Part shown: positions 13,264 to 22,611 of the stretch, one piece after another | How the letters are laid out: every line of letters begins with the position of its first letter | Numbering within the stretch: the stretch's first letter is position 1 | From: a virus | DNA: 24,442 bases | IMG/VR virus record: IMGVR_UViG_3300028422_001985 | Coordinates: 1 to 24,442 of that record | Strand: one strand, 5' to 3' | Translations under genes and position numbers: made by a program | Notes under the pieces: model-generated | Told to the model about the DNA's origin: nothing | The model's database searches: none | The model's input: the letters and a program-made list of their open reading frames with translations, nothing else

Positions 13264-14469
13264 ATGGCACGGACCGCAAACATCAAGTCGCGCGTTATCG
13301 ATATTAACGTTTTCCGCTCGATCGTTTCCCATCTTGAGGATACGGACGCGTGGCTTTCTTCCGTAGGGGAAAGCCAGTCGGTATTTACCGCGATGATGGA
13401 CGACCCGAAGGTTGAATCCCTCGTAAACAACCGGAAGGACCGGGTGCTTCAGATGCAGGGATCGTTCACCGACACGAAAAACAAGATGGTAAGCGAAGCG
13501 TGCGCGAAGCACCTCGGCTTCAATACCTTCCAGAAACTCAACCGGGTCCTTCTCAACGCCATCCCGTTCGGTATCGCCCTTTGCGAAGTGAACTGGGAGC
13601 TGAAGGACGGATTATACGTTCCCGAGTCTTTTACTCCAATCCCGAGAACCGCGATTTCATTTCCCAATTACGCATCCGATCCCTTCACCCCATGGCTTTC
13701 GGCCACGAGTAAGCCGCTCAGTGATCCTTTCAAATTCATGGTTCACCGGAACGATGCCGGAGACGGTAACGTATGGGGGCGCCCGGCCATTCGCTCATCG
13801 TACTGGGCGTGGAAGTTCAAGCGCCTCGGTTTCAAGTTCTGGATTATGGCTGCCGAGCGAATCGGCGTTCCTTCCATCCTCGCCATCTTCGAAGCCCGTA
13901 CCGACACTGACGCGGATGCCCGCGCAAAGACCCTGAACAATCTGATGGCCGAAATTGGCAGCGGGAGCACCGGAGCCCTCGGCAACGTGAAGGATATCAA
14001 GGTGGTGGAAAGCGCCATCGCTGACTTTGAAAAGATCGTGGATACCTGTAACGCCGAAATCGCCTATGGCATTACCGGACAAACCCTGACCACCAATCAG
14101 GCAGAATACGGCACGAAGGCGCAAGGGGAGCTTCACAGCAAGACCTATGATTCCACTACCTTCGGTGACGCATACCTCCTCCAGGAGACGGACCAGCGCC
14201 TGGTTGACTGGTTCTGCGAGATCAACTTTCCCGGCGAAGAGGTTCCGACCTATGATATAGATTCGACCGACTACGCCCCATGGGAAATCGTCAGGGACGC
14301 GATTGACCGCGGGGTGCCCGTTTCCCTTTCGTCGCTCTACGAGAAGAACCATCTTCCCAAGCCGAAAAACGAAGCCGATACCTTCTTGAAACCTGCGGGT
14401 TCCCCTGCGCCGATGTTCAGCGACCGAGGGAGCAACCGGGATTCTTTTTTTTTTCGGACGAGGCGGTAA
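13264..14469 (+). CDS. portal protein (DUF935, Mu gp29-like), 3' end at a poly-T tract
   Basis: This 401-aa protein matches the DUF935 portal family: an N-terminal 'DPKVESLVNNRKDRVLQMQGSF', a central 'NRVLLNAIPFGIALCEVNWEL', and 'AYGITGQTLTTNQAEYGTKAQGELH' in parts. Portals form the dodecameric DNA gate of the head. GAGGAG lies six bases before the ATG. The frame ends abruptly after a 10-T run as FFFRTRR. Family members are normally about 80-100 residues longer, and the missing C-terminal sequence is encoded at once in the -1 frame. The protein is therefore truncated by an indel or extended by frameshifting. Confidence 0.88.
   Translation: MARTANIKSRVIDINVFRSIVSHLEDTDAWLSSVGESQSVFTAMMDDPKVESLVNNRKDRVLQMQGSFTDTKNKMVSEACAKHLGFNTFQKLNRVLLNAIPFGIALCEVNWELKDGLYVPESFTPIPRTAISFPNYASDPFTPWLSATSKPLSDPFKFMVHRNDAGDGNVWGRPAIRSSYWAWKFKRLGFKFWIMAAERIGVPSILAIFEARTDTDADARAKTLNNLMAEIGSGSTGALGNVKDIKVVESAIADFEKIVDTCNAEIAYGITGQTLTTNQAEYGTKAQGELHSKTYDSTTFGDAYLLQETDQRLVDWFCEINFPGEEVPTYDIDSTDYAPWEIVRDAIDRGVPVSLSSLYEKNHLPKPKNEADTFLKPAGSPAPMFSDRGSNRDSFFFRTRR
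14445..14454 (+). other. 10-T tract, candidate -1 frameshift site
   Basis: Ten consecutive T residues are read in the portal frame as TCT TTT TTT TTT. A -1 slip on T-TTT-TTT (14448-14454) would continue at TCG 14454 into a 576-codon open frame. An SD-like AGGGAG (14427-14432) lies about 15 bases upstream, a position known to stimulate -1 shifts in bacteria. The zero-frame stop comes 12 bases after the tract. Confidence 0.55.
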
Positions 14470-16184
14470 AGAGCGAGATCGCTAAAGCTGACCGACTCGA
14501 CTCTATCGACGATCACGCTCGGACGTTCGTATCCGGGAGTTTCGCGCGGAGACTCCGGGGCTTTATCGATCAGATTATAGAAAAACCTGACTTGCTCGAT
14601 TCGGTTGAAGCGCTTCCGGTTGACTGGGAAGCAGCGATCGCTACGGCCGACCTTTTTACCCGATCGATTCTCATGGGCATCGATCACGCTCTTCCCACTT
14701 CACATAACTTTGCCGAGGATATCCCGGTGGAAGTGCTTTCATTCGAGGAAGCGGTCAAATACATGCGATCCCGTCTACCGCTTTCAGCTCGCGAGTACTA
14801 TGAACTCGACGACAAGATGCGGTACCGTGCCTTCGCCGTTTCCCGGCTTGCCGACGCCGATGCCGTAGCCCAGGTAAAAAAGTACCTTCAGAAGAGCCTT
14901 GACGAAGGCGGAACGCTCGATGACTTCCGTAAGTTCACCAATGAAGAGCTGCTTGACGCGACCGGGCTCGGCCAAACCGCCGGATGGTACTGGGAAACGG
15001 TATACCGCACCAACGTGCAGACGGCTTACAACGTCGGCCGGGCAATCGGTTTCGATTCGGCGCACCCCATCGCCCTTGAACTCATCGGCGTAAACGACCT
15101 CAGGCAAACCGAATTTTGCCGAAGTGTGACCGATCCACCGTTCCGCCGACCCTATGGGGATACAGTATGGGAAACCATGTGGCCGCCCTTTCATTTCAAC
15201 TGCCGCACGACAGTTCGGGGGATTTATGACCAGGAAGAGATTGACGGAGAGGGTGGTCCTGACAGGTTCTACACGATCGCTGGACAAGATGCCCCGGAAC
15301 CAGGATGGGGTTCAAACCCGCTCGACGGATCAGACTGGTGGGAGATGACCCCGGCCATGAAGAAGCGGGCCAAGAAAGCGAAGATCGACAAGGAAATCAA
15401 GAAAGCCCGTGAAGTCCTTGTGGAACAGCCGAAAAAGCTGGAATACCGGGAATCCCGGACGATCGCCGAGGCGAACAAGTTCGCGCGTAACGACCTTGGT
15501 CTGACCGGTTCCAGTTACTCGGGTTGCCACGTAGAAGCCGCGAATGAATGGAACCGGTCCCTTGTCAAGAACCTGAACCAGTTCCCGGAAGTCCAGGGCT
15601 TGCGCTACGTGGGATCCTTCGCCGATGCGAAAAAGAAATATACCGCTGCAAGAACCGAGACACTATTGGAGAAACTGAAAGCAGATTATCCAGGGTTCAG
15701 TGAAGAGACGCTGCGAAAGAGCGCCAAGAAGATGGCCAGGAAAGCGGCGGAACAGACCTATGTTTCATCGGCCCATGGACTGATGTATTACGGTGACATT
15801 GACGAGATCAAAGGTATCGCGCTCAATGACCGTCTTGCCTCAAATCCGGAATGGCACCGAATGCTGCGTAAACGAGAGGTCAATAATAGGTACAAGGTCA
15901 TCGGAGGGGATAGCATCGGGGCGATCGCAGATCATGAGTTTGGGCACGTTCTGGACAACTGGCTCGACATCAGCGATAATTCCGATGTGCAGCGAATTTT
16001 CTCCAAGCTCAAGGCCGATGACGGCGTGGAGTTGCTTTCGGGTTACGGGACTTCAAACATTCATGAAATGATTGCCGAAAGCTGGGCAGAATGGCGGAAC
16101 AATCCGGTACCGCGAGAGACGGCAACGAGCGTCGCAGAAATAATCTTGAGGAGGTACGCCGAATGGAAAAAGCAGAATTCATAG
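14454..16184 (+). CDS. portal C-terminus + MuF head protein + C-terminal metallopeptidase toxin-like domain
   Basis: This open frame has no good start of its own; its first start-like codon is TTG 14592 without a ribosome site. The first 75 or so codons encode the DUF935 C-terminal region ('RRLRGFIDQIIEKPDLLD'). Next comes a MuF/gp30 domain: 'TLDDFRKF', 'TVYRTNVQTAYNVGRAIGF' and 'WPPFHFNCR'. The last 230 residues form a separate domain with HEFGH (bases 15933-15947; residues 448-452 counted from 14592), a zinc-peptidase motif, and 'IHEMIAESWAEW', a likely third ligand (Glu492 or Glu496). MuF proteins with C-terminal toxin domains are a known polymorphic-toxin class of temperate phages. A -1 shift would give a portal-MuF-toxin fusion of about 973 aa. 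A true gene split, with an undetected internal start, is the alternative. Confidence 0.8.
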   Translation, partial: SDEAVKSEIAKADRLDSIDDHARTFVSGSFARRLRGFIDQIIEKPDLLDSVEALPVDWEAAIATADLFTRSILMGIDHALPTSHNFAEDIPVEVLSFEEAVKYMRSRLPLSAREYYELDDKMRYRAFAVSRLADADAVAQVKKYLQKSLDEGGTLDDFRKFTNEELLDATGLGQTAGWYWETVYRTNVQTAYNVGRAIGFDSAHPIALELIGVNDLRQTEFCRSVTDPPFRRPYGDTVWETMWPPFHFNCRTTVRGIYDQEEIDGEGGPDRFYTIAGQDAPEPGWGSNPLDGSDWWEMTPAMKKRAKKAKIDKEIKKAREVLVEQPKKLEYRESRTIAEANKFARNDLGLTGSSYSGCHVEAANEWNRSLVKNLNQFPEVQGLRYVGSFADAKKKYTAARTETLLEKLKADYPGFSEETLRKSAKKMARKAAEQTYVSSAHGLMYYGDIDEIKGIALNDRLASNPEWHRMLRKREVNNRYKVIGGDSIGAIADHEFGHVLDNWLDISDNSDVQRIFSKLKADDGVELLSGYGTSNIHEMIAESWAEWRNNPVPRETATSVAEIILRRYAEWKKQNS

Positions 16185-16330
16185 AGAAAGCCGGAGCGGC
16201 TGGTGCCGACCAGGAGTTTATCGATTGGGCTATCAAGTTCCACGAGGAAGACGGGGGCGAAGGTTTTCATATGCCCTACGAGATCATCCTTGATGAATAC
16301 CAAGCGACCAAAAAAACATATGTTTCCTGA
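16163..16330 (+). CDS. 55-aa acidic protein overlapping the MuF gene, immunity candidate
   Basis: A strong GAGGAGG (16148-16154) eight bases before ATG 16163, inside the last codons of the MuF gene, starts a 55-aa acidic protein (MEKAEFIEKAGAAGADQEFIDW...). It overlaps the MuF stop by 22 bases and is followed seven bases later by a terminator. Small acidic genes coupled to the 3' end of toxin genes are often immunity proteins. Here that is inference from position, size and charge; no known family is recognised. Confidence 0.65.
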   Translation: MEKAEFIEKAGAAGADQEFIDWAIKFHEEDGGEGFHMPYEIILDEYQATKKTYVS

Positions 16331-21904: not shown

Positions 21905-22315
21905 ATGAAGCTTACCGCAAAGCCGAGATACTGGTTTACGCCCAACTGGAAGGGGAACGCTGACTTACCCGACGGGGAGCGCGTTGAGGTAGAAATCATT
22001 CGTCCTAAGGCCGAAGACCGGGCAAACCTGGTCTTTGCCGAGACGGTACAGGAAATCGGTACCGCCGCGGGCGGAAAGGACTCTTTTGTCCGTTCCGTTT
22101 CCATCAGGACGAAGTTCAATGTACGGGAAATTCTCAACAACAACGTCGGCGGGGTGAAGAACCTGTCCGTTGACCAGGACGGAACCGAGGTTAAGCTCGA
22201 AACCGGCGCTGCCATTTCGGTAAGTACTGCCTATGGCCTCTCCAGGCTCATTGACCTCATCTGCGCTGAGGTAACCTCCGACATTCTCACGGATACGGAA
22301 AAAAAAAGTTCCTGA
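21905..22315 (+). CDS. tail assembly chaperone, short form
   Basis: This 136-aa protein lies between tail tube and tape measure genes and ends at a 9-A run (TEKKSS, stop). Position, size and the slippery end match the G protein of the lambda G/GT system. The chaperone coats the tape measure while the tube polymerises. GGGG lies upstream of the ATG. Confidence 0.85.
   Translation: MKLTAKPRYWFTPNWKGNADLPDGERVEVEIIRPKAEDRANLVFAETVQEIGTAAGGKDSFVRSVSIRTKFNVREILNNNVGGVKNLSVDQDGTEVKLETGAAISVSTAYGLSRLIDLICAEVTSDILTDTEKKSS
22299..22307 (+). other. 9-A slippery tract, programmed -1 frameshift site
   Basis: The zero frame reads GAA AAA AAA AGT TCC TGA. A -1 slip on A-AAA-AAA (22300-22306) continues with AAG TTC CTG into the next open frame. 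The zero-frame stop follows six bases after the run. This is the expected site for the tail chaperone fusion. Confidence 0.85.
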
Positions 22316-22611
22316 TCGGCTTTAATCTCGTCTATTACGGGTGGGCCGGGGAGACCTGGAATCCGGTATACGACGAGAAAAAAGAAATGATCGGAGATCA
22401 TGTCCTCAGGCGATCGGAGTTCAGGGAATACCTGGACTCCGATTTTTTTACCGCTTTCCGGCTATGGACCAGGTGCGACCGTTACGGTCTTCCCCATGGG
22501 GCTTCCGGCTGGCTTGAGGAGCCGGGTGCAGTGATTGAGCTGGTAGAATTGTTTGACGGGGAACGCGACCGGCTCAATTTGAAGGAGAGAAAGCGCAATG
22601 CAAATCAGTGA
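22306..22611 (+). CDS. tail assembly chaperone -1 frameshift extension (T part of GT)
   Basis: This 101-codon frame runs from the slippery site to a TGA that overlaps the tape measure start. It encodes 'FLIGFNLVYYGWAGETWNPVYDEKK' (in parts) and ends with a charged helix 'ERDRLNLKERKRN'. An internal ATG exists at 22387, but no ribosome site precedes it, and the open frame continues upstream to the slip site. The fused product would be about 235 aa, a normal GT size, and recruits tube subunits to the tape measure. Confidence 0.8.
   Translation, partial: KFLIGFNLVYYGWAGETWNPVYDEKKEMIGDHVLRRSEFREYLDSDFFTAFRLWTRCDRYGLPHGASGWLEEPGAVIELVELFDGERDRLNLKERKRNANQ

What the first reader, a model, noticed from the sequence alone, without database searches (positions are those of the whole stretch)
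14427..14469. Poly-T tract would join the portal and MuF proteins by a -1 frameshift
Seen: the portal frame ends 12 bases after ten T residues, while the -1 frame from the same tract is open for 576 codons and begins with what looks like the missing portal C-terminus, then MuF. No convincing start for MuF exists downstream. An SD-like AGGGAG lies about 15 bases upstream. Known: -1 slippage on U-UUU-UUU and upstream SD stimulation occur in bacteria, and this same phage has a -1 site in its tail chaperone gene. Inference: most chains would be a short portal, and a minority a portal-MuF-toxin fusion of about 973 aa, fixing a low copy number per virion. Length variation in the tract could also act as a phase switch.
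Basis: partly seen in the sequence, partly recalled or inferred. Interest (0 to 1): 0.8.

Follow-up and report, generated by a model that had tools for sequence, protein, structure and literature searches.

The report
Slippery run fusing portal to MuF
A run of ten T's in this Mu-like phage genome of a Treponema-type bacterium appears to make the cell's reading machinery slip, so that one gene gives both a plain portal protein and a portal joined to the head protein MuF; a similar run, of T's or A's, sits at this spot in many related phages.

Summary
T10 (14445-14454) lies 12 nt before the portal stop. The -1 frame continues into MuF for 576 codons with no plausible start.

Relatives make this a conserved recoding site. 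Of 168 clusters (90% DNA identity) of portal-MuF loci, 130 have MuF in -1 behind an in-register A or T run of 7-10. A further 13 keep a run with MuF fused in frame 0, three have MuF in +1, and 22 have no run. Outside the junction, 356 kb of the same genes hold one run of 9 or more.

In 10 alphaproteobacterial-type clusters the polarity is mirrored: frame 0 gives the fusion, and a -1 slip meets a stop after 2-10 codons. Both products therefore seem to be wanted.

The frame-0 product looks like a complete portal ring subunit. The -1 frame adds what matches the portal C-terminal tail (significant only in the alphaproteobacterial-type relatives) and MuF.

Ribosomal -1 slippage is the best reading; transcriptional slippage is a live rival for runs of 9-10, this window included. 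My library searches found no published account of portal-MuF frameshifting, but the RcapMu GenBank record notes a 'possible +1 frameshift'. Nothing has been tested by experiment.

The parts
13264..14469 (+). Portal protein, frame-0 (short) product, 401 aa
   Evidence: Pfam Portal_Mu PF06074 207 bits, cut-off 23.9, aa 39-361; AlphaFold model (mean pLDDT 71) matches JBD30 portal 8rka_A, Z 21.5, rmsd 8.5 over 331 residues, and Mu portal 9knu_A, Z 20.7, rmsd 9.5 over 320
14427..14432 (+). AGGGAG, SD-like possible stimulator, 12 nt before the run
   Evidence: sequence; best 8-mer duplex with a recalled anti-SD -7.9 kcal/mol
14445..14454 (+). T10 slippery run; in-register T_TTT_TTT heptamers at 14445-14451 and 14448-14454
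14467..14469 (+). Frame-0 stop TAA of the short portal
14454..16184 (+). -1 frame: portal-tail-like segment, MuF and C-terminal domain; no evident start of its own; stop 16182-16184
   Evidence: phrog_220 minor head protein E 1.7e-28; Phage_Mu_F 28.5 bits, just under cut-off 29.6
14490..14690 (+). Segment in the place of the canonical portal C-terminal tail (predicted helical)
   Evidence: same position as in alphaproteobacterial-type relatives, where it matches Mu gp29 at about 430-510 with E 4.6e-8; spirochaete set alone E 0.074, not significant; helices in the model; borders approximate
14871..15215 (+). MuF (Phage_Mu_F) domain
15435..16163 (+). C-terminal domain, variable among relatives; HEFGH zincin-like motif at 15933-15947
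   Evidence: phrog_324 match, aa 328-570 of the -1 protein; no Pfam match; motif read from the sequence, its family name recalled

Best explanation
The T run is a programmed slippage site. Most likely elongating ribosomes, perhaps helped by the AGGGAG just upstream, slip -1 on T_TTT_TTT. Ribosomes that do not slip add four more codons, stop, and release a 401-aa portal that looks like a complete ring subunit. Those that slip go on to make a 973-aa portal - portal-tail - MuF - C-terminal-domain protein. Shown by comparison: the conserved -1 relation, the conserved in-register run, the lack of an evident MuF start, and the mirror polarity in relatives. Inferred: that ribosomes rather than RNA polymerase slip here, that both products enter the same 12-subunit portal, and that the slip rate thereby sets how many MuF domains each head receives at the portal.
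For: 92 of 100 spirochaete-type clusters and 38 of 68 alphaproteobacterial-type clusters have MuF in -1 with an in-register A/T heptamer. Elsewhere in 356 kb of the same genes one run of 9 or more exists. In codon terms: in all 44 T-type clusters the codon before TTT TTT ends in T (18 of 18 Asp are GAT, against 510 of 1,203 elsewhere) and both Phe codons are TTT (455 of 895 elsewhere); this restates the run but shows the synonymous choice. All 11 T7 clusters have the exact T_TTT_TTT in the only phase that gives a full heptamer and an SD-like signal (mean -4.6 against control -0.4 kcal/mol) ending 7 nt before it. In 10 mirror clusters a -1 slip meets a stop after 2,2,2,2,2,3,4,4,4,10 codons, control median 19, 0 of 20,000 resamplings as short. 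The run's base changed at least 3 times on the tree, and polarity changed at least 6 times in the alphaproteobacterial-type clade, while a run stayed. Of 130 clusters, 13 have any ATG/GTG/TTG in -1 within 25 nt of the stop, 3 have ATG, none with an SD by my pattern. The frame-0 product spans the modelled part of solved Mu-type portals.
Against: No expression, peptide or reporter data. The SD signal of the T7 clade is weaker by a stricter measure (best 8-mer 4-15 nt upstream at -5 or lower: 36% against 27% in control); it is 29% against 24% in the T8-T10 group and depleted in the A groups (6% against 21%, 2% against 24%). No downstream RNA structure stands out. Runs are mostly 9 (102 of 130), longer than a heptamer needs, which suits RNA polymerase slippage. 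Five alphaproteobacterial-type clusters inside the slip clade have an ATGA/GTGA start instead of a run, so covalent fusion is not always needed. Three clusters have MuF in +1, and of three spirochaete-type clusters fused in frame 0 only one (L144) has a close -1 stop (-1 distances 3, 11, 17).
Confidence: 0.66

Rival explanations
1. Same two products, made by transcriptional slippage: RNA polymerase inserts one U on the T10 run, and translation of the 11-U mRNA reads straight into MuF.
For: Nine A or T is the length at which selection against slippage is seen in a large proportion of bacterial genomes, and conserved 9A/9T runs in homologues are taken as a sign of purposeful slippage (PMC1088944, passages). 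102 of 130 clusters have exactly 9 and 15 have 10. The long-run groups lack SD-like or structural stimulators as groups.
Against: 11 T7 clusters and two of length 8 (T8; RcapMu's A8) fall below that length and keep the -1 arrangement, although the same paper says shorter runs may slip in some bacteria. In mirror loci the -1 frame is closed within 10 codons while the +1 frame, which single-base deletions would enter, runs 1-98 codons.
Confidence: 0.25
2. MuF is made as its own protein by re-initiation near the portal stop, or from a start inside the -1 frame; the run is incidental.
For: Five alphaproteobacterial-type clusters without a run do have an ATGA or GTGA overlap. Mu and the other canonical phages looked at have separate genes.
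Against: 117 of 130 run-bearing clusters have no ATG/GTG/TTG in the MuF frame within 25 nt of the stop, and none of the other 13 has an SD by my pattern. In the window the first candidate is TTG 14592 with no SD.
Confidence: 0.05
3. The run length is a sequencing error, or the gene is a decayed or phase-variable fusion that is simply broken in this copy.
For: Homopolymers are error-prone; L050, L059, L073, L101 and L200 look one base longer or shorter than their near relatives.
Against: The same -1 arrangement recurs in independent assemblies, including Treponema bryantii strain B25 (L035), single-contig genomes (G041, G050, G042) and the phages RcapMu, RcWaterboi and RR1-B. Both frames stay open.
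Confidence: 0.03

Closest known systems
Lambda gpG/gpGT-type tail chaperone frameshift
   Same: One gene gives a short and a -1-extended protein in a set ratio; this phage seems to have such a site too (A9 at 22299-22307)
   Different: In lambda neither product stays in the mature virion (PMC5009743, passages); here the gene is the portal and the extension is a head protein
Frameshift-extended capsid proteins (T3/T7 gene 10, Lactobacillus phage A2)
   Same: A slip adds a C-terminal extension to some copies of a structural protein (PMC5009743, passages)
   Different: Coat or other major virion proteins, not the unique-vertex portal
Portal-MuF single-gene fusions of Microbacterium phages (subclusters EA3, EA5, EA8; cluster EB)
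   Same: Portal and MuF joined in one chain (PMC7302621, passages)
   Different: Described as fused genes; the passages seen mention frameshifting only for the tail chaperone
Rhodobacter phage RcapMu record NC_016165
   Same: GenBank note: short Mu gp29-like portal, 'possible +1 frameshift would allow readthrough'; MuF 'lacks a good ribosome-binding site'. A8 run and -1 MuF frame found here
   Different: A note on one phage; names no site and no second product
dnaX of E. coli and of Thermus thermophilus
   Same: Two proteins from one gene; Thermus uses transcriptional slippage on A9 (PMC1088944, passages). The E. coli AGGGAG plus A_AAA_AAG arrangement is recalled
   Different: Cellular DNA polymerase gene
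SPP1 gp6 portal and gp7 MuF
   Same: gp7 binds the portal and is present in one or two copies per capsid (PMC5576092, passages)
   Different: Separate proteins (recalled: separate genes)

Membership tests
-1 programmed ribosomal frameshifting | In-register X_XXY_YYZ heptamer in the overlap of the two frames | tested here: met
   T_TTT_TTT at 14445-14451 and 14448-14454; 130 of 130 clusters with a run and MuF in -1
-1 programmed ribosomal frameshifting | Conserved -1 relation and site among homologues | tested here: met
   92 of 100 spirochaete-type clusters
-1 programmed ribosomal frameshifting | Stimulator: upstream SD-like element or downstream structure (frequent, not universal) | tested here: inconclusive
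   SD-like in the window and, clearly by one of two measures, in the T7 clade; not in other groups; no structure signal
-1 programmed ribosomal frameshifting | Fusion product made from unedited mRNA | not testable with these tools
   needs protein and RNA data
Transcriptional slippage | A or T run of about 9 or more | tested here: met
   T10 here; but 11 clusters of length 7 and two of length 8 in the same set fall below
Transcriptional slippage | mRNAs of mixed run length | not testable with these tools
   no RNA reads available
Mu-type portal (PF06074) | Profile match above cut-off and portal fold | tested here: met
   207 bits against 23.9; Z 21.5 to 8rka_A, rmsd 8.5 over 331 residues; model mean pLDDT 71
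MuF / Phage_Mu_F (PF04233, TIGR01641) | Profile match above curated cut-off | tested here: inconclusive
   PF04233 28.5 bits against 29.6; TIGR01641 26.7 against 39.65; phrog_220 minor head protein E 1.7e-28
MuF / Phage_Mu_F (PF04233, TIGR01641) | Encoded directly after the portal | tested here: met
MuF polymorphic toxins | C-terminal domain that varies between relatives and includes known toxin domains | tested here: inconclusive
   Of 9 C-termini scanned, one match above cut-off (Gln_amidase, L057) and three below (Peptidase_M91 L036, CdiA_C L033, SAS-6_N L047); five without a match, the window among them

The most novel reading that the evidence does not exclude
Two clades of Mu-like phages keep a slippage site at the portal-MuF boundary so that the 12-subunit portal is built deliberately unequal: mostly short subunits plus a few that carry the portal tail, MuF and its cargo domain inside the head. 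The slip rate would be the device that sets MuF copy number per virion. It is kept with either base and in either polarity.
Probability: 0.5. Interest if true: 0.8.

Novelty: new variant of a known kind. Interest (0 to 1): 0.7.

Why it matters
How phages place one or two MuF molecules at a twelve-fold portal is not obvious from ordinary gene expression. A conserved slip that fuses MuF to a fraction of portal subunits would explain it, and it can be tested in culturable phages such as RcapMu. It would also mean that portal and MuF genes of these phages are mis-annotated: in the RcapMu record, for example, MuF is given a start that the annotators themselves doubted, and the joined product is not listed.

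Tried and rejected
Downstream RNA structure as stimulator: mean z-scores of 60-nt windows after the run (-0.06 to -0.80 by group) do not differ clearly from control windows. SD as a general stimulator: one of two measures shows it clearly in the T7 clade; it is present in the window and depleted in A-type groups. Phase variation: rejected as main reading; by eye 5 of 168 clusters are one base off their near relatives, and assembly error is not excluded. Portal tail in the spirochaete set: right position, not significant (E 0.074; 0 of 94 segments by BLASTP, against 22 of 48 alphaproteobacterial-type). Fold search of the MuF model: 0 matches at E 0.001 or better. First scans with the single portal sequence in genome and viral contigs confirmed no relative; scans with alignment A1 did. 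The viral scans were capped: best 80 of 101 and best 80 of 94, so distant relatives are under-counted. Rows dropped before counting: L029, L031 (no portal match), L027, L087, L219, L249, L271 (portal runs off the locus), L199, L216 (no MuF match, although run and stop are visible); 253 loci were left, the window included. For the 22 clusters without a run the frame relation was not interpreted, because the MuF queries contain the tail segment and can match the portal itself. L086's cluster was left out of the tree for a short portal. Clusters at 90% identity are not phylogenetically independent, so naive probabilities overstate the strength.

Full report
What is there. The portal ORF (13264-14469, 401 aa) runs into T10 at 14445-14454 and stops at 14467-14469. 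The -1 frame is open from 14307 to 16184 and carries MuF. AGGGAG lies 12 nt before the run. In the -1 frame the first possible starts after the run are TTG 14592 and ATG 14673. The window sits in G000:C57.

Relatives. A search of 194 genomes, the window's own included, found the portal in 34. Those loci, with 56 from named genomes and 79 from viral contigs, show the same order again and again: portal, homopolymer, portal stop, MuF in -1. At 90% DNA identity there are 100 spirochaete-type clusters. Of these, 92 (the window included) have MuF in -1 with a run: A9 38, T9 28, T7 11, A10 10, T10 4, T8 1. Three are fused in frame 0, two have MuF in +1, and three have no run.

A second group. Among the named phages looked at, Mu, KS10, AFS-2018a, Mushu, martha 12B12, a Helicobacter prophage and Y8A have separate genes and no heptamer. 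RcapMu, RcWaterboi, Rhizobium RR1-B and EBPR siphovirus 4 have A8 or A9 shortly before the portal stop and MuF in -1. The RcapMu record already notes a short portal and a 'possible +1 frameshift'. Queries with RcapMu and RR1-B portals brought 93 further loci, some from the same contig. With the four phages, and after dropping five rows, they form 68 clusters: 38 with a run and MuF in -1, 10 with A9 and MuF in frame 0, one with A8 and MuF in +1, 19 without a run. 'Alphaproteobacterial-type' is my label after the named hosts; most members are unnamed viral contigs.

Mirror polarity. In the 10 frame-0 clusters the run reads AAA AAA AAA or, once, GTA AAA AAA AAC in the fused frame, and a -1 slip meets a stop after 2,2,2,2,2,3,4,4,4,10 codons. 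The +1 frame runs 1-98 codons. Random positions in the same ORFs give a median of 19 for -1; 0 of 20,000 resamplings were as short. So where the fusion is the default, the slip would give the short portal. This is the strongest sign that both products are wanted. The three spirochaete-type fused clusters do not show it as a group (-1 distances 3, 11, 17; +1 distances 5, 6, 8).

Selection on the run. Outside the junction, 356 kb of the same genes (143 clusters) hold one A/T run of 9 or more and 93 of 7 or more. In all 44 T-type clusters the codon before TTT TTT ends in T, and both Phe codons are TTT. Asp there is GAT in 18 of 18, against 510 of 1,203 elsewhere; Phe elsewhere is TTT in 455 of 895. 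On a FastTree tree of 174 portals the two slip clades are separated by phages with separate genes. Slip versus separate needs 4 changes. Among rows with a run, the base needs 3 changes and the polarity 6 in the alphaproteobacterial-type clade. Several deep forks are weak and long branches meet, so I do not claim the number of origins.

Ribosome or RNA polymerase. For the ribosome: T7 loci carry the exact T_TTT_TTT heptamer in the one useful phase (11 of 11) and an SD-like signal ending 7 nt upstream (mean -4.6 against -0.4 kcal/mol); the window has AGGGAG (-7.9). Against it: by the stricter measure only 36% of T7 clusters have a strong SD, against 27% of control windows, and the A groups are depleted. 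No structure signal was found. For RNA polymerase: 102 of 130 runs are exactly 9 and 15 are 10, a length linked to transcriptional slippage (PMC1088944, passages). I put the ribosome first for this window, with polymerase slippage as a serious rival. Slippage by one or the other I hold at about 0.9.

What the two products are. The frame-0 product matches Portal_Mu over nearly the whole profile. Its model (mean pLDDT 71; five stretches under 50, among them 380-401) matches JBD30 portal residues 41-409 and Mu 39-401. Those portals are 526 and 512 aa long, but the structure chains hold only 405 and 369-383 residues. So the short product seems to cover the ordered ring, and the canonical C-terminal hundred residues seem largely unmodelled (inference from those lengths). 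The segment right after the slip matches that tail in the alphaproteobacterial-type set (E 4.6e-8; 22 of 48 by BLASTP) but not significantly in the spirochaete set (E 0.074; 0 of 94). MuF and a variable C-terminal domain follow. Of nine C-termini scanned, one has a Gln_amidase domain above cut-off and three have matches below cut-off; the window's has a HEFGH motif and no Pfam match.

How it would work. SPP1 MuF binds the portal and is present once or twice per capsid (PMC5576092, passages). A minority of portal-MuF chains in a twelve-subunit ring would give such a number directly. The ratio, the mixed ring and the purpose are inference. Against a strict need for fusion, five alphaproteobacterial-type clusters inside the slip clade have no run and an ATGA or GTGA overlap from which the tail-MuF protein could start.

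Known or new. Eight searches of the open library for combinations of portal, MuF, frameshift and related words (one search listed 20 of 46 papers) and passages of twelve papers showed no description of portal-MuF frameshifting; most papers listed were not opened. 'Portal' does not occur in the held part (first 300,000 of 475,107 characters) of a main review (PMC5009743). Portal-MuF fusion as one gene is known in Microbacterium phages (PMC7302621, passages). I did not see the original RcapMu paper. So: a new variant of a known kind.

Noticed in passing
22299-22307: Gene 21905-22315, in the place of a tail chaperone, has A9 with an in-register A_AAA_AAA, and the -1 frame leads into 22387-22611: a likely second, classical frameshift site in the same phage, on A rather than T.
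   Followed up: partly
16163-16330: Small ORF (55 aa) overlapping the end of MuF, no Pfam match; its position would fit an immunity or accessory protein for the variable C-terminal domain.
   Followed up: partly
L191, L239, L241, L242, L261 at the portal stop: Alphaproteobacterial-type phages inside the slip clade without a run, with an ATGA or GTGA overlap from which the tail-MuF protein could start.
   Followed up: partly
L059 and L062: Two contigs of one metagenome bin carry sister copies that differ by one A in the run (A10 fused, A9 slip).
   Followed up: no
G042 contig C1: One single-contig genome holds four portal copies with the same score and identity, suggesting several copies of the same Mu-like prophage.
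   Followed up: no
PHROGs phrog_113 and phrog_220: The two profiles are 1,272 and 1,338 positions long, which may mean that portal-MuF fusions are mixed into them.
   Followed up: no
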